Assembly (NCBI GenBank): GCA_017524445.1
Contig: JAFXVP010000058.1
Span: forward strand, 1 to 64,000
DNA length: 64,000 nt
Direction of reading: 5' to 3'
Source: Clostridia bacterium
GTDB taxonomy: Bacteria; Bacillota; Clostridia; Christensenellales; CAG-138
Within the stretch, counting starts at the first letter, position 1; the number at the start of each line of letters is the position of its first letter. A program made the translations under genes and the position numbers. Under the pieces are notes generated by a model. The model was not told the DNA's origin. It ran no database searches and saw nothing but the letters and a program-made list of their open reading frames with translations. This document shows, piece by piece, positions 5,160 to 18,951 of the stretch.

Positions 5160-5828
5160 TTAGTCGATCATGCTCTTGAGGTTCTCGGAGACCGTGATCG
5201 GCGCGGCGGTGACTGCCTGCACCTGTTCCGGGGTGAATTCCGGGTTGATCTCGGTCATCAGAAGTCCGTTCGGCGTGACTTCGAGGACGCACATCTCGGT
5301 GATGATCTTCTTTACGCAATGCGAAGCGGTCAGCGGCAGACGGCACTTTTCGAGGATCTTCGGGTTGCCCTTCGCGGTGTGCTCCATGCAGACGATGCAG
5401 TTCTTTGCGCCGACGCAGAGGTCCATAGCGCCGCCCATGCCGGGCATGCGCTTGCCGGGGATGATCCAGTTTGCGAGGTTGCCTTCCTGGTCGACTTCGA
5501 GCGCGCCGAGGAAGCACGCGTCGACGTGACCGCCGCGGATCAGACCGAAGTTCGTTGCGGAATCGATGAAGCCGCCGCCGAACGCCACGGACGCGACGTT
5601 GCCGCCCGCGTCGACGACGTGGTACGGATCGTAGTTCGGGTCTTCGGGCTTCGGAGTCGCGCCTGCGCCGACGATGCCGAGCTCGGCATGGATGACGAGG
5701 TCAACGCCCTCGGGAAGGAAGCCGGGGATCATGGTCGGAAGGCCGATGCCGAGGTTGACGACGTCGCCGTCCTTCAGTTCTTTCGCGCAGCGCTTTGCGA
5801 TAAAGGCTTTGATTTCAGACTTATCCAT
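5160..5828 (-). CDS. atoA: 3-oxoacid CoA-transferase, beta subunit (butyryl-CoA:acetoacetate type)
   Basis: A 222-residue subunit B of a family I CoA-transferase. The active-site glutamate is expected at Glu49, in HAELGIVGAG, followed by the glycine-rich oxyanion region FGGGFIDSA. Upstream in-frame codons exist, but MDKSEIKAFIAKR is the family start. Its ATG overlaps the stop codon of the alpha subunit (TAATG), indicating translational coupling. In lysine fermentation this enzyme moves CoA from butyryl-CoA to acetoacetate, releasing butyrate and making acetoacetyl-CoA; the assignment of these substrates rests on its position at the end of the kam/kce/kal operon. Confidence 0.92.
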   Translation of the reverse strand: MDKSEIKAFIAKRCAKELKDGDVVNLGIGLPTMIPGFLPEGVDLVIHAELGIVGAGATPKPEDPNYDPYHVVDAGGNVASVAFGGGFIDSATNFGLIRGGHVDACFLGALEVDQEGNLANWIIPGKRMPGMGGAMDLCVGAKNCIVCMEHTAKGNPKILEKCRLPLTASHCVKKIITEMCVLEVTPNGLLMTEINPEFTPEQVQAVTAAPITVSENLKSMID

Positions 5829-6520
5829 TATTTTCTCTCTCCTTCCACGATGTAGTCGACGCACATGCCGTACGTGTGGATGTTCTCTGGCTCGATCTCG
5901 CCGATCGGGACGAGGTATTCGGTCTCGGCAATGACGGTGTCCGCCGCAGTCGCCATGACGGTGTTGAAGTTGCGCATCGTGCCCTTGTACCAGCAGTTGC
6001 CGGCTTCGTCGCACTTATAGGTGCCGAGGAGCGCAAAGTCCGCATGGATCGGCTTCATCAGAAGATACTGCTTGCCGTCGATTTCCTGCTTGCCCATGCA
6101 CAGCGGGCTTTCCTCGATCAGCGTGTCGACGCCGACGGGGGTGAGTACGCCGCCGAGTCCCGCGCCGCCCGCGCGGATGCACTCCGCCATCGAGCCCTGC
6201 GGGATCAGGTTGACCTCGAGCGTGCCGGCGTTCATCTGTTCGCCGACCTCGGGCGTCATGCCGACGTGCGTTGCGATCACGCGCTTGACCTGATGGTTGT
6301 GGATGAGCTCCGCAATGCCGAAGAACTCCTCGCCCATGGGACCTGTCGCACGACCCATGTCGTTTGCGATCAGCGTGAGGTCCTTGGTGCCGAGCTTCAC
6401 AAGCTCCTTGACGATGGCGCGCGCCTGTCCGCAGGCGAGAAAGCCGCCGCACATGATCGTAGCGCCGTCGGGAATCATTTTCGCTGCCTCGGCGGCAGTG
6501 ATGACCGGTTTCTTTGCCAT
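5828..6520 (-). CDS. atoD: 3-oxoacid CoA-transferase, alpha subunit
   Basis: A 230-residue subunit A of a family I CoA-transferase, recognised by the glycine-rich CGGFLACGQ loop near residue 25, the NDMGRATGP segment and the MAECIRAGGAGLGGVLTPVG region. It forms a heteromer with the beta subunit, whose start overlaps its stop. A GGAGG site precedes the ATG. It lies 42 bases after kamE in the same direction, so it belongs to the lysine operon and supplies the last CoA-conserving step that yields butyrate and acetoacetyl-CoA. Confidence 0.92.
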   Translation of the reverse strand: MAKKPVITAAEAAKMIPDGATIMCGGFLACGQARAIVKELVKLGTKDLTLIANDMGRATGPMGEEFFGIAELIHNHQVKRVIATHVGMTPEVGEQMNAGTLEVNLIPQGSMAECIRAGGAGLGGVLTPVGVDTLIEESPLCMGKQEIDGKQYLLMKPIHADFALLGTYKCDEAGNCWYKGTMRNFNTVMATAADTVIAETEYLVPIGEIEPENIHTYGMCVDYIVEGERK

Positions 6521-6562: not shown

Positions 6563-7351
6563 TTATTTCATGCCGCGTTTGACCATTTCCGTCACGACGA
6601 AACTCGCCACGTCGTCGCCGTACGTGCCCGCGCCGAAGCCGGCGTCGAAGCCGAGCTCCTTGGCAAGCTCATGCGTGATGCGCGGACCGCCGCAGACCAC
6701 CACGAACTTGTCGCGAAGACCCTCCGCTTCCAAAAGCTCAATGAGGTTGGTGAGGTTCTGGATGTGGATGTCCTTCTGCGTGACCGTCTGCGAGACGAGA
6801 AGCGCGTCCGCGTGGACCTCGACCGCCTTTTTGATAAAGTCTTCGTTCGTCACCTGCGAGCCGAGGTTGTACGCCTCGACCATCTCGTAGCGCTCCACGC
6901 CGTAATGCCCCGCAAAGCCCTTGCGGTTCATGATCGCGTCGATGCCGACCGTGTGCGCGTCGGTGCCGGTAGAGGCGCCCACCATCACGACCTTGCGCCC
7001 GATGTGCTCGCGGATGTAGTCGTTCGTTTCCTCCATGCTCATCACCTCGGATTCGACGGTGATGACGTGGATGTCCTCGTAGTTTACGGTGTGCACGCAG
7101 CTGCCGTAGACCACGTAGAACGTAAATTCCTTGTCGAGCGCCGCGTGATACGTCACGTTCGGCTCGTCAAGGCCCATCTTCTTTGCGATCTGCCGCGCCG
7201 CTTCCACGCCGCGTTCGTCGTCCTTGACCGGCAGGGTAAAGGAGAGCTGCACCTTGCCGTCGTTCATCGTGTCGCCGTACGGCTTCAAGCGTGTCAGATC
7301 GAGCGTGGTGTCGAATTCGATCTTATGCGTGTTGTACAATCCGCTGCTCAT
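6563..7351 (-). CDS. kamE: Lysine 5,6-aminomutase, beta subunit (B12-binding)
   Basis: A 262-residue beta subunit of the adenosylcobalamin- and PLP-dependent D-lysine (or beta-lysine) 5,6-aminomutase. The cobalamin motif DAHTVG supplies the lower axial ligand His133. Lys144, in MNRKGFAGHYG, matches the lysine that forms the internal PLP aldimine in the characterised clostridial enzyme. Both residues fall at the same numbers as in that enzyme, which supports the chosen start. The ATG overlaps the kamD stop by four bases. It converts L-beta-lysine made by KamA into 3,5-diaminohexanoate together with KamD. Confidence 0.96.
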   Translation of the reverse strand: MSSGLYNTHKIEFDTTLDLTRLKPYGDTMNDGKVQLSFTLPVKDDERGVEAARQIAKKMGLDEPNVTYHAALDKEFTFYVVYGSCVHTVNYEDIHVITVESEVMSMEETNDYIREHIGRKVVMVGASTGTDAHTVGIDAIMNRKGFAGHYGVERYEMVEAYNLGSQVTNEDFIKKAVEVHADALLVSQTVTQKDIHIQNLTNLIELLEAEGLRDKFVVVCGGPRITHELAKELGFDAGFGAGTYGDDVASFVVTEMVKRGMK

Positions 7352-8910
7352 TCGTTTGCCACCTTGCCTTTCATGACCTCGATAAACGGGTTGAAGTAGT
7401 GTTCATCCTTCAATACGACGCCCGCAAGGCCCTTGCCGCCGTCCTTCGGACGCTTGACGTCCGCGAAGATGCCGCGTTCGAGCGTGGTGAAGAGCCCGAG
7501 CGTTTCGATCTCCTTCAAGAGCTCTGTCGCTTTCGTCAGCACTTCGTTTGCGCGGGAGCGGATGACGCCGCCCTCCCTGAAGGTGAGTTCTGAGCCGAGA
7601 TCCTTCATTGTGCGGAAGATGTACTGCGCGTTTTCGATCGACAGCGCACGGTCGGACATGAACGGCGTGTGAATCGCCTCGGTCATCATGCCCAAAAGAT
7701 GCAGCTTTTGATTGGTCAGGATCGTAACCATGTTGAACAGCGCGTCCTGAATGTGCCCGCGGAAGATGTTGCCGGTCATGTACTTCGTCGGCGGCATGTA
7801 TTTGAGAGGCGCTTTCGGGAAGATCTCGCGCGCCATCTGCGCCTGCGCAAGCTCGTAGAGGAACGTGTTTTCGACCGCGGGATCCATCTCGAACGCGTGT
7901 CCGAGACCCATCTGTTCCTCGCGCATGCCGGCGCACTTCGCGAACGCCTCATTCAGGAACTGCGACGCAAGCACCGTGTGCGCGGACGTGATCGCGTCGT
8001 CGGTCGTGAGGTAGTTGTCCTCGCCAGTGTTGATGATGACGCCCGCGTAGCCGTTGATGATGCGGGAAAAATACTGGTCCACGATCGTGCGCTGCATGTT
8101 GATGTCGCGGAACAGAATGCCGTACAGCGCGTCGTTCAGCATGACGTCGAGCCGTTCCAATGCGCCCATGGCCGCGATCTCCGGCATGCAGAGACCCGAG
8201 CAGTAGTTGCACAGGCGAATGTAGCGGTGCTGTTCCTCGCCGACCTCGTCGAGCGCCGCGCGCATCAGGCGGAAGTTTTCCTGCGTTGCGTAGGTGCCGC
8301 CGAAGCCCTCGGTCGTCGCGCCGTAGGGAACGTAGTCGAGGAGCGACTGTCCCGTCGTGCGGATGACCGCGATGATGTCCGCGCCCTGCTTCGCGCCGGC
8401 CTTCGCCTGGATGATGTCCTCATAGATGTTGCCGGTCGCGACGATGATGTAGAGGTACGGACCTTGCTTGTCGCCGAAGCGTCCGAGGTATTCGTTGCGC
8501 TTTGCGACGTTCTTGTTGATCCGCGCCATCGCCGCGTCGATATGCGGCTGCAGCGCTTTTCGGATCTCCGCTTCGTCGTGCGCGGGCAGTTTCGTAAGGT
8601 CGATCTCGCCGCGGTCGATCGCTTCCGCGACGCCCTGCGGATCGAGCCCGGTTTCAAGGATCAGCGTGCCGATGAGCCACGCCGCGCCCTGCGGCAGCAG
8701 CGCGTCCTCCATCATGCGGTCCACGACCACGTTCGGCATGGGAACGTCCATGTCGTTGACGCCGTCGATACCGAGAAGACGACAGACGGTGCGCTCGACC
8801 GTGACGGTCGTGTGTACGTCGATGAAGCGCTGCACGTCCGCCGCGACGTGCGCCGCGGAGGTACGCGCCTCGTTGACAAGATCAAAGTTCAAGCCGAGTT
8901 TGCTTTCCAT
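7348..8910 (-). CDS. kamD: Lysine 5,6-aminomutase, alpha subunit
   Basis: A 520-residue alpha subunit with the TIM-barrel that binds PLP, adenosylcobalamin and substrate; the length is normal for the family. Characteristic stretches include PKAPLKYMPPTKYMTGNIF and TNQKLHLLGMMTEAIHTPF. It partners KamE, whose start overlaps its end. It lies nine bases after kamA on the same strand and has a GAGGTG ribosome site. The enzyme inactivates during turnover in related organisms and is rescued by a dedicated reactivase, which is encoded nearby as kamB-kamC. Confidence 0.96.
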   Translation of the reverse strand: MESKLGLNFDLVNEARTSAAHVAADVQRFIDVHTTVTVERTVCRLLGIDGVNDMDVPMPNVVVDRMMEDALLPQGAAWLIGTLILETGLDPQGVAEAIDRGEIDLTKLPAHDEAEIRKALQPHIDAAMARINKNVAKRNEYLGRFGDKQGPYLYIIVATGNIYEDIIQAKAGAKQGADIIAVIRTTGQSLLDYVPYGATTEGFGGTYATQENFRLMRAALDEVGEEQHRYIRLCNYCSGLCMPEIAAMGALERLDVMLNDALYGILFRDINMQRTIVDQYFSRIINGYAGVIINTGEDNYLTTDDAITSAHTVLASQFLNEAFAKCAGMREEQMGLGHAFEMDPAVENTFLYELAQAQMAREIFPKAPLKYMPPTKYMTGNIFRGHIQDALFNMVTILTNQKLHLLGMMTEAIHTPFMSDRALSIENAQYIFRTMKDLGSELTFREGGVIRSRANEVLTKATELLKEIETLGLFTTLERGIFADVKRPKDGGKGLAGVVLKDEHYFNPFIEVMKGKVANE

Positions 8911-8919
8911 AGCCGCACC

Positions 8920-10170
8920 TCAGTGCTTGACGTGCCGCTCGTTGCGCAGAAGCTTCGTCGGCTCGAGGTAGTGCTGCTTCGTGCCCTCGGCAACGTACGC
9001 GACGCCGGTCTTTTCGATCTTCTTTTTGCCGGTGCAGACGTCGCAGTGGCAGTTGGACACGTAGTGCTCCGGCTCGGTGTAGGACGTGATGACGCCCTCG
9101 AAGTTTCTCAGGATGACCTTTCTCGGCGTCTGCGAGATCAGATACGTCGGCATGACGGGCGTCTTGCCGCCGCCGCCCGGCGCATCGACCACAAAGGTGG
9201 GTACGCAGTAACCGGAGGTGTGTCCGCGCAGCGCTTCCATGATCTCGATGCCCTTAGAAACCGGGGTACGGAAATGCGAAAGACCGAGGGACGGGTCGCA
9301 GGCGTAGATGTAGTACGGACGCACGCGCATCTTGACAAGCCCGTGCACGAGCTCCATCATGACGTGGCTGCAGTCGTTGATCCCGGCGAGAAGCACGCTC
9401 TGGTTGCCCAGCGGAATGCCCGCGTCTGCGAGCATGGCGCACGCCTTTGCCGCCTCGGGCGTGAATTCCTTCGGCGTGTTGAAATGCGTGTTGAGCCAGA
9501 TGGGATGGTACTTTTTGAGCATATTGCAAAGCTCCGGCGTGATGCGCTGCGGGCACACGACCGGCGTGCGCGAGCCGAGACGGATGATCTCGACGTGCGG
9601 GATCGCGCGAAGCTTCTGAATGATGCTCTCGAGCACAGCGTCGCCGACCATCAGCGCGTCGCCGCCAGAAAGCAGCACGTCGCGGACCTCGGGGTGGTTT
9701 CTCACGTATTCGATGCACTTGTCGATTTGCGCCATCGGAACGCCGCAGTCGTTCTGCCCTGCAAAGCGGCGGCGCGTACAGTGACGGCAGTACATTGAGC
9801 ACATATCCGTGATGAGCAGCAGCACGCGGTCGGGATAGCGGTGGGTGAGACCCGGCGTCGGGGAATCGGTGTCCTCGTGCAGCGGGTCGGCGTCCTCATA
9901 GTCGGCATAGTCGAGCTCCTCCGCGCGCGGGATCGCCATCTTGCGGATCGGATCGTATGGATCGTCGAGATCGATCAGCGAGAGATAGTACGGCGTGATC
10001 GCCATGCGGAGCTTGCCGAGCGTCTTTTTCACGCCTTCCTCCTCCTCGGGGGTCAGCGTCATGATCTTTTTGAGATCGTCGAGCGTTTCGGCGCGGTTTC
10101 TTACCTGCCAGTGCCAGTCGTTCCACTGTTCTTCCGGAACGTCGGCGAAAAGACCGTTGCGGGTTTTCAT
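8920..10170 (-). CDS. kamA: Lysine 2,3-aminomutase (radical SAM)
   Basis: A 416-residue radical SAM, PLP-dependent enzyme that converts L-lysine to L-beta-lysine, the entry step of lysine fermentation. The cluster motif CSMYCRHC supplies Cys124, Cys128 and Cys131; the PLP lysine is Lys336 in PGGGGKTP; a C-terminal CHCDVC motif (near residue 378) matches the zinc site of the clostridial enzyme. The start is preceded by AAGGAG. It begins a kamA-kamD-kamE-atoDA block that is separated from kdd by a 235-base gap holding a hairpin and a dispersed repeat. EpmB-type relatives are shorter and lack the C-terminal zinc part, so the catabolic assignment is firm. Confidence 0.97.
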   Translation of the reverse strand: MKTRNGLFADVPEEQWNDWHWQVRNRAETLDDLKKIMTLTPEEEEGVKKTLGKLRMAITPYYLSLIDLDDPYDPIRKMAIPRAEELDYADYEDADPLHEDTDSPTPGLTHRYPDRVLLLITDMCSMYCRHCTRRRFAGQNDCGVPMAQIDKCIEYVRNHPEVRDVLLSGGDALMVGDAVLESIIQKLRAIPHVEIIRLGSRTPVVCPQRITPELCNMLKKYHPIWLNTHFNTPKEFTPEAAKACAMLADAGIPLGNQSVLLAGINDCSHVMMELVHGLVKMRVRPYYIYACDPSLGLSHFRTPVSKGIEIMEALRGHTSGYCVPTFVVDAPGGGGKTPVMPTYLISQTPRKVILRNFEGVITSYTEPEHYVSNCHCDVCTGKKKIEKTGVAYVAEGTKQHYLEPTKLLRNERHVKH

Positions 10171-10405: not shown

Positions 10406-11458
10406 TTAGCAGTATTTTTCGTCGAACAGCTTGCGGAGCTTCGCGTTCTCGCGGAGCACGTTCAGCGTGATTTCGGCGTGGTTCTTGGTGTAGCCGTTGC
10501 CGACGATCATGGTGACGTCCTTACCGACGCCCTCCGCGCCGAGCGCCGCCTTTGTGAACGAGGTTGCCATGGAGAAGAAGTACACGAGACCGTCGTCGCG
10601 GACCGGGAGGATCGCGCTCATCTCGCAGGACTCGATGTTGACGCAGCAGATGGAGATGTCGTATTCCTTGCCGCCGTTGACTTCGAGCGCCTTTTCAAGC
10701 ACTTCGACGGGCTTCGTGCAGTCCGCCACGATGACGTCGGTGTAAACGCCGAGCTCGATCAGTGCCGGGACCTGCTTCGGGTTTCTTACGACGCCGACGA
10801 CCTTGCCGTTCGGGCCGACCTTTTTCAGCGCTTCCCAGCCGCAGAGCACGCCGGACTTGCCGTTTGCGCCGAGGATCAGGACGGAATCGCCTTCCTTCGG
10901 GAGCTTTCTTGCCTGCGCAGGCGCGCCTGCTACGTCGAGCGCCGCAAGCGCAAGCGCTTCGGACATATCGTCGGGCAGCTTTGCGTAGATCGCGGATTCA
11001 AACAGCACCGCCTGACCGTCGATGTCGACGCGGTCGATGTCCTTGTGGATCGCCTTGATGCGGTCGATCCTGAGCGGCGTCATGGAGAGGGAGACGAGGG
11101 ACGCGATCTTGTCGCCGACCTTGAGGTCAAAGTCCGGCTTTTTGAGGAGATCTTCGCCGATGTAGGCGACCTTGCCGATGAACATGCCGCCGCTTCCCGT
11201 GACCGGGTTCTGCTGCTTGCCGCGTTCCGCAACGATACCGAGGATCATTTCACCGATCTTCTGCTCGTCGCCGCCGCACGCTTCTTCGATCTGCGTGAAC
11301 GACGCGGAGTCGATGTTGAGCGAGATGACGTCGCAGATGATCTCGTTGCTGTAGCGCTTCGTCATGTCGTTGTCGATCTTCCATGCCGCCTGCGTGAGAA
11401 CGCCCTTCGGCTCGATGACGCGGTGGGTGCCGTACTTATTGCCCTTTAACTGTTCCAT
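10406..11458 (-). CDS. kdd: L-erythro-3,5-diaminohexanoate dehydrogenase
   Basis: A 350-residue NAD(P)-binding oxidoreductase of the Kdd family. It oxidatively deaminates 3,5-diaminohexanoate to 3-keto-5-aminohexanoate (5-amino-3-oxohexanoate). The N-terminal GTHRVIEPKGVLTQAAWKID is typical of the family, and the nucleotide-binding region lies near residue 195 (VLILGANGKSGVL). AGGAGG precedes the ATG. It sits between kce and kamA in the lysine operon and supplies the substrate of Kce. The protein is distantly related to medium-chain alcohol dehydrogenases but lacks the usual zinc ligands. Confidence 0.95.
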   Translation of the reverse strand: MEQLKGNKYGTHRVIEPKGVLTQAAWKIDNDMTKRYSNEIICDVISLNIDSASFTQIEEACGGDEQKIGEMILGIVAERGKQQNPVTGSGGMFIGKVAYIGEDLLKKPDFDLKVGDKIASLVSLSMTPLRIDRIKAIHKDIDRVDIDGQAVLFESAIYAKLPDDMSEALALAALDVAGAPAQARKLPKEGDSVLILGANGKSGVLCGWEALKKVGPNGKVVGVVRNPKQVPALIELGVYTDVIVADCTKPVEVLEKALEVNGGKEYDISICCVNIESCEMSAILPVRDDGLVYFFSMATSFTKAALGAEGVGKDVTMIVGNGYTKNHAEITLNVLRENAKLRKLFDEKYC

Positions 11459-11492: not shown

Positions 11493-12320
11493 TTATTGAC
11501 GCGGTTTCATGCCGAGGATCGCGCGCGCCTCGTCCGGCGTTGCGATCTCACGACCGAGTTCCTTTGCAAGGCGAACGACCTTTTCGACGAGCTCGCCGTT
11601 AGAAGCCGCCTTGTGCCCTTTTCCGAGGTACACGTTGTCCTCGAAGCCGACGCGGACGTTGCCGCCCATGATGATGCCTGCCGCCGCCATGGTCCATGCG
11701 GAACGGCCGACGCCGGTGACCGTCCAGGTCGAGCCCGCGGGGATCTTACTGACCATGTAGGCAAGGTTGTCGACGGTCGCGGGCGCGCAGCCGGGAACGC
11801 CGAGCACGAAGTTGAACTGCATCGGCGCGCCGGGGACTTCGCCCTTACGGGCCATCGTGAGCACGGTGTCGAGATGCCCGAGCTCGAAGCATTCGTATTC
11901 GGGCTTGATGCCGTTTTCGATCATGCGCTTGCCGAACGCGCGCATCGTGGGCATCGTGTTTTCAAACACATCGTCGCCGAAATTGCAGGTGCCGCAGTCG
12001 AGCGTCGCCATTTCCGGCATGAGCTCGGTCGGCTGCAGACGCTCCTCGGGCGTCATGCCGGTCGCGCCGCCGGTCGACGGGATCATGATGACATCGGGAA
12101 GTTCCGCTCTGATTGCGTCCATCACGACGCGGAAGCGCTCACGGTCCTGCGTCGGCGTGCCGTCGTCCCAGCGGACGTGCACATGGATGATCGCCGCGCC
12201 CGCTTCATAAGCGAGCTTTGCTTCGCGAACCATTTCCTCGACGGTGTAGGGGACGGCGGGATTATTCGCCTTGGTGACTTCGGCGCCGCAGATGGCGGCG
12301 GTGATGATGAGCTTTTCCAT
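11493..12320 (-). CDS. kce: 3-keto-5-aminohexanoate cleavage enzyme (BKACE family)
   Basis: A 275-residue member of the beta-keto acid cleavage enzyme family (DUF849). Zinc ligands His46 and His48 are seen in IIHVHVR, with a further acidic ligand expected around Glu227 (VGFEDN). It condenses 3-keto-5-aminohexanoate with acetyl-CoA to give acetoacetate and L-3-aminobutyryl-CoA. It lies ten bases after kal and 34 before kdd on the same strand, with AAGGAG before its ATG. Neighbouring kal and kdd make the lysine substrate much more likely than other BKACE substrates. Confidence 0.96.
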   Translation of the reverse strand: MEKLIITAAICGAEVTKANNPAVPYTVEEMVREAKLAYEAGAAIIHVHVRWDDGTPTQDRERFRVVMDAIRAELPDVIMIPSTGGATGMTPEERLQPTELMPEMATLDCGTCNFGDDVFENTMPTMRAFGKRMIENGIKPEYECFELGHLDTVLTMARKGEVPGAPMQFNFVLGVPGCAPATVDNLAYMVSKIPAGSTWTVTGVGRSAWTMAAAGIIMGGNVRVGFEDNVYLGKGHKAASNGELVEKVVRLAKELGREIATPDEARAILGMKPRQ

Positions 12321-12330
12321 GGCGTTCTCC

Positions 12331-12738
12331 TTATTTGTCCCTGCTCCGGTCGATGCGCTGGCAGTCCTTCGGCGTGACGCAGGTGCCGTGCGCGCGGCAG
12401 ACCACGATCGGTTCGGGCAGCACTTCGGCGGCGGAGGGGGAGATGTCCGGACGCGCCTGAATGACTTTCCGCGCTTCGAACGTCATGCCGCGGGAGGTGT
12501 TGCCGATGCGGTCGATCTCGCCGTACGCTTCGATGTAATCGCCCGCGTAGACCGGCGCGAGAAATTCGATCTTGTCGTAGGCGCAGAACAGCCCTTCGTC
12601 GCCGTCGCATTGGATCAGAAGCTCGGTCGCGACGTCGCCGAACAGGTGCACCATGTGCGCGCCGTCGACCAGATTTCCGCCGTAGTGCGCGTCCTTCGCG
12701 CTCATGCGGAGCCGGAGCATAGAGGTCATTTTTTCCAT
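12331..12738 (-). CDS. kal: 3-aminobutyryl-CoA ammonia lyase
   Basis: A 135-residue hotdog-fold protein of the Kal family, which eliminates ammonia from L-3-aminobutyryl-CoA to give crotonyl-CoA. The [21 protein letters not shown] region near residues 20-40 and the [13 protein letters not shown] strand are characteristic. Its ATG is preceded by AAGGAG at 12747-12752. It is the first gene of the riboswitch-controlled operon, directly downstream of the leader terminator. Its product feeds the acyl-CoA dehydrogenase/Etf system at the start of the window. Confidence 0.95.
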
Positions 12739-12811
12739 GTGTCATTCTCCTTCGCAATTGAAATTTGAAATGGGATCAGCGTTTCCGCGGGGTCCTCGAC
12801 ACGATCGGTAT

Positions 12812-12853
12812 AAAAAAGGGCGCTGTCGGCCGAACGATCGGCCAATAGCGCTC
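12812..12853 (-). terminator. Riboswitch-controlled terminator in the kal leader
   Basis: On the minus strand GCGCTATTGGCCGA pairs with TCGGCCGACAGCGC (one mismatch) around a TCGT loop and is followed by six T. The 5' arm includes the 3' strand of riboswitch helix P1, so the two structures exclude each other. Confidence 0.88.
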
Positions 12854-13018
12854 CATGTCCTTTTTGTATCGAAACATGACAGCATTGCCGCTTACACGGC
12901 AATGCCAGAAACCGGATCGGGCGGTTCCGATCTCTTCGGCGGACGGCCCCTTTCCCGAACGACGTTCCCGGCTGCCCAAGCCGGTCGGACGGGTACCCTG
13001 CTGTCCGCACCTCTATTG
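12843..13018 (-). ncRNA. Lysine riboswitch (L box) aptamer
   Basis: On the minus strand, about 176 bases with the conserved parts of the lysine riboswitch in order: GAGGTGCG just inside helix P1 (13006-13013), a GGGAAAGGGG segment (12947-12956), GCCGAAG (12934-12940), a CTGG followed by a strong GCATTGCCG/CGGCAATGC hairpin (12882-12905), and GTCATG...GGACATGG before P1 closes. P1 pairs CAATAG (13013-13018) with CTATTG (12843-12848). The aptamer sits between a strong promoter and kal, the first gene of a lysine-degrading operon. Since P1 uses bases needed by the terminator, lysine binding should favour read-through. Confidence 0.93.
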
Positions 13019-13044
13019 AAGACCTGATGGAAATCTGTATGAAA

Positions 13045-13074
13045 ATTATACCCGATTTTAAGGTCTGTTGTCAA
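13045..13074 (-). promoter_or_regulatory. Promoter of the kal operon and riboswitch
   Basis: A perfect TTGACA (13069-13074) and TATAAT (13045-13050) with an 18-base spacer, reading toward the riboswitch. The -35 box begins only nine bases after the kamC stop codon. Confidence 0.92.
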
Positions 13075-15647: not shown

Positions 15648-17501
15648 ATGAAGAAATCGACGCAGCGGATCATCATCCTCGTATCGGTGATCGCGGCCGT
15701 CGCGCTGTTCGCGCTGTTCCTGTCCGATATCCTGATCCCGTTTATCCGTCTTGAGATTAATAACGACGTCGAAGGCGCGAAGGAGCTTCTCGTCGACAAG
15801 GGCGTGCTCGGCTTCCTTTCCGTCGTGCTCGTCGAGGCGCTGCAGATGGTCGTCGTGTTCATTCCGGCGGAGTTCATCCAGATCTCGTCGGGACTCAGCT
15901 ATCCGTTCTATATCGCGCTTCTTTTGTGTGATCTCGGCGCGTGTCTCGGCGCGACGATCATTTACGTGCTGGTCACGACGTTCCGGTTTTCAAGCGAGGC
16001 GTACGAAAAGAACGAACGAAAGATCGAAAAGCTTGCCGCAAGGGTCAAAAAGGACCGCGGCACGCAGCTTTTGCTGTACCTGCTGTTCATCATGCCGTTG
16101 ATCCCGTTCGGCGCGATCTGCTACTACGGCAGCTACAGCAAGATGAAATACCGCCGCTATATCTTCACCGTCGCGACCGGCGTCATCCCGTCGATCGTCA
16201 CGTCCAACCTCATGGGCATGGCGGCGCGGTATTTCATCAGCAACGACCTTCCGTTGTGGCTTCTGATCCTCATCATCATCGGGCTTGCCGCCATTCTGCT
16301 CGTCATTCTGTTCCTGTTCCTCAACAAGGTCTTTTTGAAACAGAACGCGGGCACGCCGGATTCGGTGTACCTCACCGGCTTTTTCTCCCTGCTGCACCGG
16401 TTCTGCCGTCCCAAATGCAGGCTGCACGTGGACGACGCGAAGCTTCGCGATCTTCCCGCGCCGTTTATCGCGCTCTGCAACCATGAGTCGTTCTTCGACA
16501 TGTACTACACAAACCGCCTGTTCCAGAATGCGAAAGCGACCCCGTCGTACGTCGTGAACAAGCATTACATCGCAAGCCCTCTCGTCCGAAAGATCGCGGC
16601 AAAGGGCGGCGTGATCCCGAAAAAGCTGTTTACGCCGGATCTGTCCGTGCCGGTGCAGATCATGCGCATGCTCAAAAAAGGGTATCCGGTCATCATCTTC
16701 CCGGAGGCGCGGCTTTCGGTCGACGGGCGCAATAATCCGATCATCGACAGGAGCGCGGCGTTTTACCGCAGGCTCAAAACTGATCTTGTGCTCGTGAAGA
16801 TCCGCGGCTCGTACTTCGCAAAGCCCAAGTGGCGCAAAACCTTTTTCCGTTCGGATATCTTCGTTTCCGCCGAACGCGTGATCACCAAAGACGAGATCGC
16901 CGCCATGACCGACGACGAACTGAACCGGCTGATCGACGAGTCGTTCGCGTTCGACGAATCCGTCGATCCGGTCAACACATACAGGCAAAAGAACAAGGCG
17001 AAGGGACTTAGTAACATCCTGTACCGCTGCGTCGACTGCGGCGCGCTGTATACCACGCAGGGCGCGGGGAACGAGCTCACTTGTTCCGCCTGCGGAAAGG
17101 TACACCGGCTGAACGAGCAGTATCTCTTTGAAGACGAGCCGTTTTCGATCGGCGCGTACTATGCAAAGATCAAGGACCTTGAGAAGGCGGAGCTGAATGA
17201 GCTGCGCCTCGAAGCGGACGTCGACACCGTGATCTTCCGTGATACCGGCAGGTACAGGACCAGGGAGAAGGGGCATTGCACGCTGACGAACGAGGGCTTT
17301 TCCTACCGCTCGGAGAGCGTCCGCTTCACGCTCGGCTTCGACGCGCTGCCGGCGCTGCCGTTCTCTGTGAACGAAGAGTTCGAAACGTATTACAACGGAG
17401 ACCAGTACTATTTCTACCCGACCGAAAACCGTCGGCAGGTCGTGCGCTGGGCGCTGATCGTCGACCTCGTCAAGGAGCTGCGTGATGAAACAGAATCGTA
17501 A
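15648..17501 (+). CDS. VTT/DedA-like membrane protein fused to a PlsC-type acyltransferase and zinc ribbon
   Basis: A 617-residue protein in three parts. Residues about 1-235 are membrane-embedded with five or six hydrophobic segments and look like the SNARE-associated VTT/DedA family, which includes lipid scramblase-like proteins. Residues about 250-430 are a 1-acylglycerol-3-phosphate acyltransferase-type domain with NHESFFD (the H-x4-D motif) and FPEARLS. Residues about 460-490 hold two CxxC pairs (CVDCG, CSACG) that suggest a zinc ribbon. The likely role is membrane phospholipid acylation coupled to lipid movement. A GGAGGGG site precedes the ATG, and the last 17 bases overlap the next gene. 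Confidence 0.75.
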   Translation: MKKSTQRIIILVSVIAAVALFALFLSDILIPFIRLEINNDVEGAKELLVDKGVLGFLSVVLVEALQMVVVFIPAEFIQISSGLSYPFYIALLLCDLGACLGATIIYVLVTTFRFSSEAYEKNERKIEKLAARVKKDRGTQLLLYLLFIMPLIPFGAICYYGSYSKMKYRRYIFTVATGVIPSIVTSNLMGMAARYFISNDLPLWLLILIIIGLAAILLVILFLFLNKVFLKQNAGTPDSVYLTGFFSLLHRFCRPKCRLHVDDAKLRDLPAPFIALCNHESFFDMYYTNRLFQNAKATPSYVVNKHYIASPLVRKIAAKGGVIPKKLFTPDLSVPVQIMRMLKKGYPVIIFPEARLSVDGRNNPIIDRSAAFYRRLKTDLVLVKIRGSYFAKPKWRKTFFRSDIFVSAERVITKDEIAAMTDDELNRLIDESFAFDESVDPVNTYRQKNKAKGLSNILYRCVDCGALYTTQGAGNELTCSACGKVHRLNEQYLFEDEPFSIGAYYAKIKDLEKAELNELRLEADVDTVIFRDTGRYRTREKGHCTLTNEGFSYRSESVRFTLGFDALPALPFSVNEEFETYYNGDQYYFYPTENRRQVVRWALIVDLVKELRDETES

Positions 17502-18951
17502 AACACTGTTGAACCTGTCGACCAAGACGTTCATTCAGGTCGTCGTGCTGCTGTTCGTGCTGATGCTCGTCGCGGTCGTGCTGACGTACGTGATTCCGAA
17601 GGGCGAATTCGGCAAGCTGACCGACGAAGCCGGGAACGTCCTTGTGGACGAAAAGGGCAATGAACAGCTTGATTTTACCGACTACCGGAGAATCGAAGGC
17701 GCGTCCGGCATTCCGATCTGGAAGGGCCTGCTGGCGCCGATCCTCGTGTTCGGCTCGGCGAACGGGCTGGAGCTCATTATGCTGTCGCTGTTCCTCGTCA
17801 CGGTGTTCGCCGCGTTCCAGGTCATGAGCGACGTCGGCGGCATCCGCGCGCTGGTCGGACGGGTCGCAAGCCGGTTTGAAAAGCGAAAGGGCCTGCTGCT
17901 GGCGGCGATCGCGCTGGTGTTCATGGCGTTCGGCGCGTTCCTCGGCCTGTTTGAGGAGATGCTGTCGATGCTGCCGATCGTGACCGCGCTGTGCGTGCTG
18001 ATCGGTTACGACTCGTTCACGGGCTTCCTCGTCAGCATCATCGCCTGCGGCTTCGGCTTTGCAAGCGCAATCACCAATCCGTTCACGGTGCTGACGGCGG
18101 CGCGCCTGATCAACGCGAACCCGATGGAGCATATCTGGTACCGCATCGTCATCTTCGCCGTGATGTACCTGCTGCTGCTCGGCTTCGTGTTCCTGTATGT
18201 CAGACGGCTTAAAAAGGATCCGACAAGGAGCCTGACGCTTGCGCACGACGAAACGCTGCGCGCGGCGGGGACCGCGCAGGACGGGACTGCGCTGTCGCCG
18301 GAGAACGAAAAGCGCATTTCGCGCATCTACATTGTATTTCTGCTTTTAGGTCTTGCGCTGATCGTCACCTGTTCGCTGATCGAGTCGCTTCGCGGCGTGA
18401 CCGTCGTGGTGCTGATCGCGTACTTTTTGATCTTCGGGCTTTTGGCGGGTTTCCTTTCCGCAAAGGCCGCGAAGCCGGTCCTGAAGAGCTTCGGGAAAGG
18501 GATCGTCGGCGCGCTGCCCACGATCGTGTTCATTGCGCTCGCGTCGTCGGTCAAGTACGTCTTTGACGAGGGCGGGATCATGCCGACAATCGTACATTCG
18601 ATCAACACGCTCGTGTCCGGGCACAGCCCGTTCATCGTCACGCTCGTGCTGTACGCGATCATCCTCGTGCTCGAGTTCTTCATCTCGTCCTCGACGGCGA
18701 AGGCGATCCTCGTCATGGGCATGCTCGCGGTGGTTTCCGTGTCGCTCAGTAAGCAGATGCTTGTGCTCATCTACACCTTTGCCGACGGCTATACGAACGT
18801 GCTGTTCCCGACGTCGCCGGTGCTGCTGATCTCGCTTTCGATGATCGGCGTCGACTATTTCAAGTGGGTGAAAAAGAGCGTGCCGCTGTTCGTTCTGAAC
18901 CTTGCGCTCGTCGTCGGTTTTATCGCGCTCGGGATTACATTGGGGTACTGA
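17485..18951 (+). CDS. YfcC-family membrane transporter
   Basis: A 488-residue polytopic membrane protein with about twelve hydrophobic segments. FGAFLGLFEEMLSMLPI in the first half and EFFISSSTAKAILVMGML in the second are the repeated re-entrant motifs of the YfcC/DcuC/AbgT-like superfamily. Members move amino acids, peptides or dicarboxylates; the substrate is not evident. The ATG at 17485 has AAGGAG seven bases upstream and overlaps the end of the acyltransferase gene; a GTG one codon earlier is less likely. It is the nearest transporter to the lysine genes but on another transcript. Confidence 0.8.
   Translation: MKQNRKTLLNLSTKTFIQVVVLLFVLMLVAVVLTYVIPKGEFGKLTDEAGNVLVDEKGNEQLDFTDYRRIEGASGIPIWKGLLAPILVFGSANGLELIMLSLFLVTVFAAFQVMSDVGGIRALVGRVASRFEKRKGLLLAAIALVFMAFGAFLGLFEEMLSMLPIVTALCVLIGYDSFTGFLVSIIACGFGFASAITNPFTVLTAARLINANPMEHIWYRIVIFAVMYLLLLGFVFLYVRRLKKDPTRSLTLAHDETLRAAGTAQDGTALSPENEKRISRIYIVFLLLGLALIVTCSLIESLRGVTVVVLIAYFLIFGLLAGFLSAKAAKPVLKSFGKGIVGALPTIVFIALASSVKYVFDEGGIMPTIVHSINTLVSGHSPFIVTLVLYAIILVLEFFISSSTAKAILVMGMLAVVSVSLSKQMLVLIYTFADGYTNVLFPTSPVLLISLSMIGVDYFKWVKKSVPLFVLNLALVVGFIALGITLGY

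What the first reader, a model, noticed from the sequence alone, without database searches (positions are those of the whole stretch)
12812..13018. Lysine riboswitch predicted to switch ON a lysine-degrading operon
Seen: L-box aptamer landmarks and a terminator with six T between a consensus promoter and kal-kce-kdd. The P1 3' strand (12843-12848) lies within the terminator 5' arm (12837-12850), so a lysine-stabilised P1 should prevent termination. Known: most lysine riboswitches turn biosynthesis or transport OFF through a separate antiterminator. I recall proposals of lysine-activated elements upstream of catabolic genes in a few anaerobes, but cannot verify details. A direct P1/terminator overlap without an antiterminator is a simple ON design.
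Basis: partly seen in the sequence, partly recalled or inferred. Interest (0 to 1): 0.85.

Follow-up and report, generated by a model that had tools for sequence, protein, structure and literature searches.

The report
Lysine ON-riboswitch before lysine-fermentation operon
An RNA lysine sensor sits in front of a set of lysine-fermenting genes and is built so that lysine should switch the genes on, the reverse of the usual lysine sensor; this arrangement was predicted in the literature before, so the find is a well-supported new example rather than a new kind.

Summary
On the minus strand, 13023-12838 is a lysine riboswitch aptamer (RF00168, 90.8 bits, E 1.4e-22). A 12/12 sigma-70-type promoter match (13074-13045) lies upstream; the kal-kce-kdd-kamA-kamD-kamE-CoA-transferase operon lies downstream. 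The P1 3' strand (12848-12843) is inside the 5' arm (12854-12838) of a strong terminator ending in six T, so aptamer and terminator exclude each other: an ON design. Relatives agree: 39 of 80 kal loci carry RF00168, and in all 39 P1 overlaps the terminator. Of 30 lysine riboswitches in the same order without kal downstream, 22 have a separate terminator, 7 none called, and one nominal overlap is an antiterminator. P1 and terminator both covary across 41 leaders. In the window's genus all 17 kal genomes have the switch and none has lysA; four lysA genomes lack kal, and one has an OFF-type leader before lysA. Lysine switches before kal/kce (Mukherjee 2017) and lysine ON switches that bury terminator pieces (Barrick & Breaker 2007, citing Rodionov 2003) are in print. 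New member of a known kind. Lysine response itself is untested here.

The parts
13045..13074 (-). promoter TTGACA-18-TATAAT
   Evidence: 12 of 12 consensus match. Of 40 related leaders, 33 have a 12/12 match, six 11/12 and one 10/12; the -10 box ends about 20-25 nt before the Rfam match in most.
12838..13023 (-). lysine riboswitch aptamer (RF00168)
   Evidence: 90.8 bits, E 1.4e-22, model 1-182
13013..13018 (-). P1 5' strand CAAUAG
   Evidence: Rfam alignment, pairs listed; covariation with the 3' strand
12843..12848 (-). P1 3' strand CUAUUG, shared with the terminator 5' arm
   Evidence: all six bases lie in the terminator arm
12838..12854 (-). intrinsic terminator, 5' arm
   Evidence: fold -25.3 kcal/mol; covariation over 41 leaders
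12818..12833 (-). intrinsic terminator, 3' arm
12812..12817 (-). T6 tract of the terminator
   Evidence: sequence
12747..12752 (-). probable ribosome-binding site AAGGAG of kal
   Evidence: sequence, 8 nt before the ATG at 12738; inference
12331..12738 (-). kal, 3-aminobutyryl-CoA ammonia lyase
   Evidence: NF052388 equivalog, 193.8 bits, cut-off 160
11493..12320 (-). kce, 3-keto-5-aminohexanoate cleavage enzyme
   Evidence: NF052387 equivalog, 421.7 bits, cut-off 382
10406..11458 (-). kdd, 3,5-diaminohexanoate dehydrogenase
   Evidence: NF052381 equivalog, 262.3 bits, cut-off 200
8920..10170 (-). kamA, lysine 2,3-aminomutase
   Evidence: TIGR03820 equivalog, 598.5 bits, cut-off 525.4
7348..8910 (-). 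kamD, lysine 5,6-aminomutase alpha
   Evidence: NF052384 equivalog, 906.4 bits, cut-off 600
6563..7351 (-). kamE, lysine 5,6-aminomutase beta
   Evidence: NF052385 equivalog, 407.3 bits, cut-off 280
5828..6520 (-). CoA-transferase subunit A
   Evidence: TIGR02429, 184.6 bits, cut-off 128.5
5160..5825 (-). CoA-transferase subunit B (approximate 5' end)
   Evidence: ORF, named from neighbourhood and sequence; inference, not scanned

Best explanation
This is a transcriptional lysine ON-riboswitch. A strong promoter starts a leader RNA that folds the lysine aptamer. When lysine is scarce, the emerging terminator hairpin invades P1, takes its 3' strand and stops transcription before kal. When lysine is plentiful, ligand binding holds P1 closed, the terminator cannot form its lower stem next to the T-tract, and polymerase runs on into the lysine-fermentation operon. 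Shown here: aptamer, promoter, terminator, their mutual exclusion, conservation, and OFF-type layouts before other genes. Inferred: lysine binding, the direction and size of the response, and its kinetic nature.
For: RF00168 match well above the cut-off. P1 3' strand wholly inside the terminator arm, in the window and in all 39 kal loci with the aptamer. Kal leaders 17 of 19 overlap against 1 of 30 for non-kal lysine riboswitches in the relatives set, Fisher p 4e-10; the two kal exceptions and the one non-kal exception resolve by eye in the expected direction. P1: 97.6% of cells paired, 3 of 6 pairs with changes on both sides, 0 of 500 shuffles as high; terminator: 94.9% paired, 9 of 16 pairs with changes on both sides, 0 of 500. 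Where the shared strand changes, both partners usually follow. Growing-transcript folds: P1 probability about 0.9 up to 12830, near 0 by 12821. Terminator-forced ensemble -100.0 against P1-forced -89.4 kcal/mol, so the default is termination. With P1 forced, the remaining upper hairpin is separated from the T-tract. A same-genus lysA leader carries a separate terminator and an antiterminator-like pairing, i.e. OFF.
Against: No measurement of lysine binding or termination. Energies omit ligand, Mg2+, tertiary contacts and polymerase speed. The terminator is about 11 kcal/mol more stable than the P1 form, so a bound aptamer must resist by kinetics. The sampled leaders are related, so counts are not independent events; the tool warns that shuffle counts are not probabilities.
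Confidence: 0.9

Rival explanations
1. An ordinary OFF lysine riboswitch: lysine-bound P1 frees a terminator that an antiterminator blocks when lysine is low.
For: Most lysine riboswitches work this way, and the OFF layout exists in the same genus before lysA.
Against: There is no second terminator between P1 and kal; the only one uses the P1 3' strand itself. An OFF switch on a catabolic operon would also make little metabolic sense.
Confidence: 0.03
2. A translational switch, with the hairpin only incidentally terminator-like.
For: Some lysine riboswitches act on translation, as in E. coli lysC (PMC5584792).
Against: The hairpin ends directly at T6 and lies about 60 nt before the kal ribosome-binding site; the hairpin plus T-tract is conserved while the distance to kal varies widely.
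Confidence: 0.04
3. A decayed or unregulated leader: the aptamer no longer binds lysine and the terminator simply attenuates.
For: One position of the P2 internal-loop region departs from the Rfam consensus.
Against: The same variant is common in the clade, the core junction bases match the consensus, and P1 and terminator covary.
Confidence: 0.03

Closest known systems
Lysine riboswitches upstream of kal/kce in Clostridium sticklandii, Fusobacterium nucleatum and Thermoanaerobacter (Mukherjee et al. 2017, PMC5584792)
   Same: Same aptamer family, same first genes, said there to be positively regulated by lysine.
   Different: That paper gives no terminator or antiterminator anatomy and rests the ON claim on a review; here the layout, its conservation and OFF controls are shown. 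The operon here also carries kdd, kamA, kamD and kamE.
ON-logic lysine riboswitches mentioned by Barrick and Breaker 2007 (PMC2258182), citing Rodionov et al. 2003
   Same: Ligand binding buries part of a terminator stem in the alternative pairing; no extra antiterminator.
   Different: Stated there in one sentence; Rodionov 2003 could not be read here.
Adenine and glycine ON riboswitches
   Same: Same design: ligand-stabilised aptamer pairing takes up part of the terminator stem.
   Different: Different aptamer and ligand; named as ON switches in PMC2258182.
OFF lysine riboswitches (L-box) before asd, dapA, lysC, lysA and transport genes
   Same: Same aptamer.
   Different: Terminator lies downstream of P1 and is separate.

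Membership tests
Lysine riboswitch (Rfam RF00168) | five-helix aptamer with conserved core, score above gathering cut-off | tested here: met
   90.8 bits against 30, full model length
Lysine riboswitch (Rfam RF00168) | specific binding of L-lysine | not testable with these tools
   needs in-line probing or calorimetry
Transcriptional ON riboswitch with P1/terminator overlap | P1 3' strand is part of the terminator 5' arm | tested here: met
   39 of 39 related kal leaders
Transcriptional ON riboswitch with P1/terminator overlap | no separate terminator | tested here: met
   no separate terminator-like hairpin within 130 nt of the aptamer (window row)
Transcriptional ON riboswitch with P1/terminator overlap | ligand raises read-through | not testable with these tools
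   needs single-round transcription with and without lysine
OFF lysine riboswitch (L-box with antiterminator) | separate terminator downstream of P1 | tested here: not met
   window row
Lysine fermentation operon (3,5-diaminohexanoate pathway) | kal, kce, kdd, kamA, kamD, kamE present | tested here: met
   all six above NCBIfam equivalog cut-offs

The most novel reading that the evidence does not exclude
Within one rumen genus, lineages split into lysine makers (lysA, lysine riboswitch OFF or absent) and lysine eaters (no lysA, kal operon with a lysine riboswitch ON), and the ON platform arose from the OFF one by letting the antiterminator hairpin itself end at the T-tract. That would be a directly traceable reversal of riboswitch logic tied to a metabolic reversal.
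Probability: 0.2. Interest if true: 0.55.

Novelty: new member of a known kind. Interest (0 to 1): 0.38.

Why it matters
It is a clean, conserved example of a rarely described kind: a riboswitch that turns lysine breakdown on. I found no measurement of a lysine ON switch in the open-access papers searched, so this compact leader, with many natural variants and an OFF control from the same genus, would make a prediction in print since 2003-2007 easy to test. It also ties lysine fermentation in rumen bacteria to a simple RNA control.

Tried and rejected
The first automatic terminator scan misread several loci: loci from the genome search on the minus strand are not turned round, so the results for L002, L006, L008, L009, L012, L016-L019 and L021-L024 were redone. 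L120 and L114 were missed as overlapping by the strict rule; by eye L120 has the overlap hairpin GCTATCGA...TCGATAGC followed by a T-tract, and L114 has it with a short T-tract. L022 and L121 looked like overlaps, but the P1 3' pairing there reads as an antiterminator and a separate terminator follows. Rodionov 2003 and Serganov and Patel 2009 are not held. Na+/c-di-AMP tandem switches before lysine 2,3-aminomutase (PMC9337991) were considered; Rfam finds only the lysine family in this window. A phylum-wide kal sample gave only 2 of 29 loci with RF00168 nearby; by eye both are overlap designs, so the association is not phylum-wide.

Full report
What is there. On the minus strand, in transcription order: kamB (15599-14544), kamC (ORF 14664-13084), a promoter (13074-13045), a lysine aptamer (13023-12838), a terminator (12854-12818 plus T6 at 12817-12812), then kal, kce, kdd, kamA, kamD, kamE and a CoA-transferase. 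The protein assignments are above NCBIfam equivalog cut-offs for kal, kce, kdd, kamA, kamD, kamE, kamB and kamC. This is the pathway that ferments lysine through 3,5-diaminohexanoate. The aptamer scores 90.8 bits against a cut-off of 30 and is the only lysine riboswitch found in the assembly.

The anatomy of the switch. P1 pairs 13018-13013 with 12848-12843. All six bases of its 3' strand are also in the 5' arm of the terminator, which folds at -25.3 kcal/mol. The two helices therefore cannot coexist. With P1 forced, only an upper five-pair hairpin remains, separated from the T-tract. Partition-function folds of growing transcripts give mean P1 probability 0.93 at 12838, 0.94 at 12830, 0.28 at 12827 and 0.00 at 12821, while the terminator lower stem rises to 0.97. 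The terminator-forced ensemble is -100.0 and the P1-forced one -89.4 kcal/mol. So without ligand the leader should terminate, and ligand must act by slowing the invasion of P1. This last step is inference.

Relatives. A scan for kal relatives gave 80 loci; 39 carry RF00168 upstream. In all 39, and in the window, the P1 3' strand lies inside the terminator 5' arm. Of 40 related leaders checked for a promoter (these 39 plus L142), 33 have a 12 of 12 match, six have 11 and one has 10. In an alignment of 41 leaders, P1 is paired in 97.6% of cells with three pairs changed on both sides, and the terminator in 94.9% with nine; no shuffle of 500 reached these values and slid controls are far lower. 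At the shared strand the three partners differ together: for example A-T-G, G-C-G, A-T-A and T-A-T for P1 5', P1 3' and terminator 3' base at one position. The sequences are related, so this is support and not a count of independent events.

Controls. Among lysine riboswitches of 60 relatives, 19 loci with kal downstream were compared with 30 without. By a uniform rule 17 of 19 kal leaders overlap and 1 of 30 others do. The non-kal loci precede asd, dapA, lysC, an NhaC-type antiporter or a basic amino acid binding protein wherever the downstream gene was identified; for L023 it was not. Read by eye, kal exceptions L114 and L120 do overlap, and the non-kal exception L022 has a separate strong terminator with the P1 pairing acting as antiterminator.

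The genus. Of 23 genomes, 17 have kal, and each of these has RF00168 just upstream. Four have lysA, the last step of lysine synthesis, and none of these has kal (Fisher p 0.0017). In one, lysA itself follows a lysine aptamer whose leader reads as OFF: the P1 3' strand can pair with the 5' arm of a separate terminator, ACGGGCGGC-GTTTT-GCCGTCCGT then T-tract. dapA is present in 19 of 23, as expected if diaminopimelate is needed for the cell wall. Several genomes are incomplete, so single absences mean little; the exclusion pattern is more robust.

Reach. In a phylum-wide sample of kal, 2 of 29 loci have RF00168 within the flanks held. In both, the aptamer 3' end pairs with sequence directly before a T-tract (by eye). 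The association is thus strong in the window's order and its neighbours and patchy elsewhere.

What is known. Mukherjee et al. 2017 list lysine riboswitches before kal and kce in Clostridium sticklandii, Fusobacterium nucleatum and Thermoanaerobacter and call them positively regulated (PMC5584792); their text has no terminator analysis. Barrick and Breaker 2007 say certain lysine riboswitches with ON logic bury pieces of the terminator stem, citing Rodionov et al. 2003 (PMC2258182). So both the gene association and the mechanism are in print. I found no experimental test of a lysine ON switch in the open-access papers searched, which is not proof that none exists.

Verdict. It is a new member of a known kind.

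Noticed in passing
genus of the window, 23 genomes (G000-G022): lysA and kal exclude each other: 17 genomes with kal and no lysA, 4 with lysA and no kal, 2 with neither. Most of the genus looks unable to make lysine from diaminopimelate.
   Followed up: partly
L161:1064-1290: A lysine aptamer before lysA in a same-genus genome, with a separate terminator and antiterminator-like pairing (OFF layout).
   Followed up: partly
L120:1325-1420: A kal leader with two successive terminator-like hairpins, both starting with a copy of the aptamer 3' end (GAAGCGCTAT and GGAGCGCTAT); it looks like a duplicated expression platform.
   Followed up: no
window 17482-18951 +: YfcC-type gene (basic amino acid antiporter family, below the curated cut-off) near kamB; possible lysine transporter.
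   Followed up: no
genome G000: No dapA, dapB or lysA match in the window's own assembly, although dapA is in 19 of 23 genus members; may be an assembly gap.
   Followed up: partly
L062, L064, L067, L068, L070-L078 and others: 41 of 80 close kal loci, including Bacteroidales-labelled ones, have no lysine riboswitch in the DNA held; how they are regulated was not examined.
   Followed up: no
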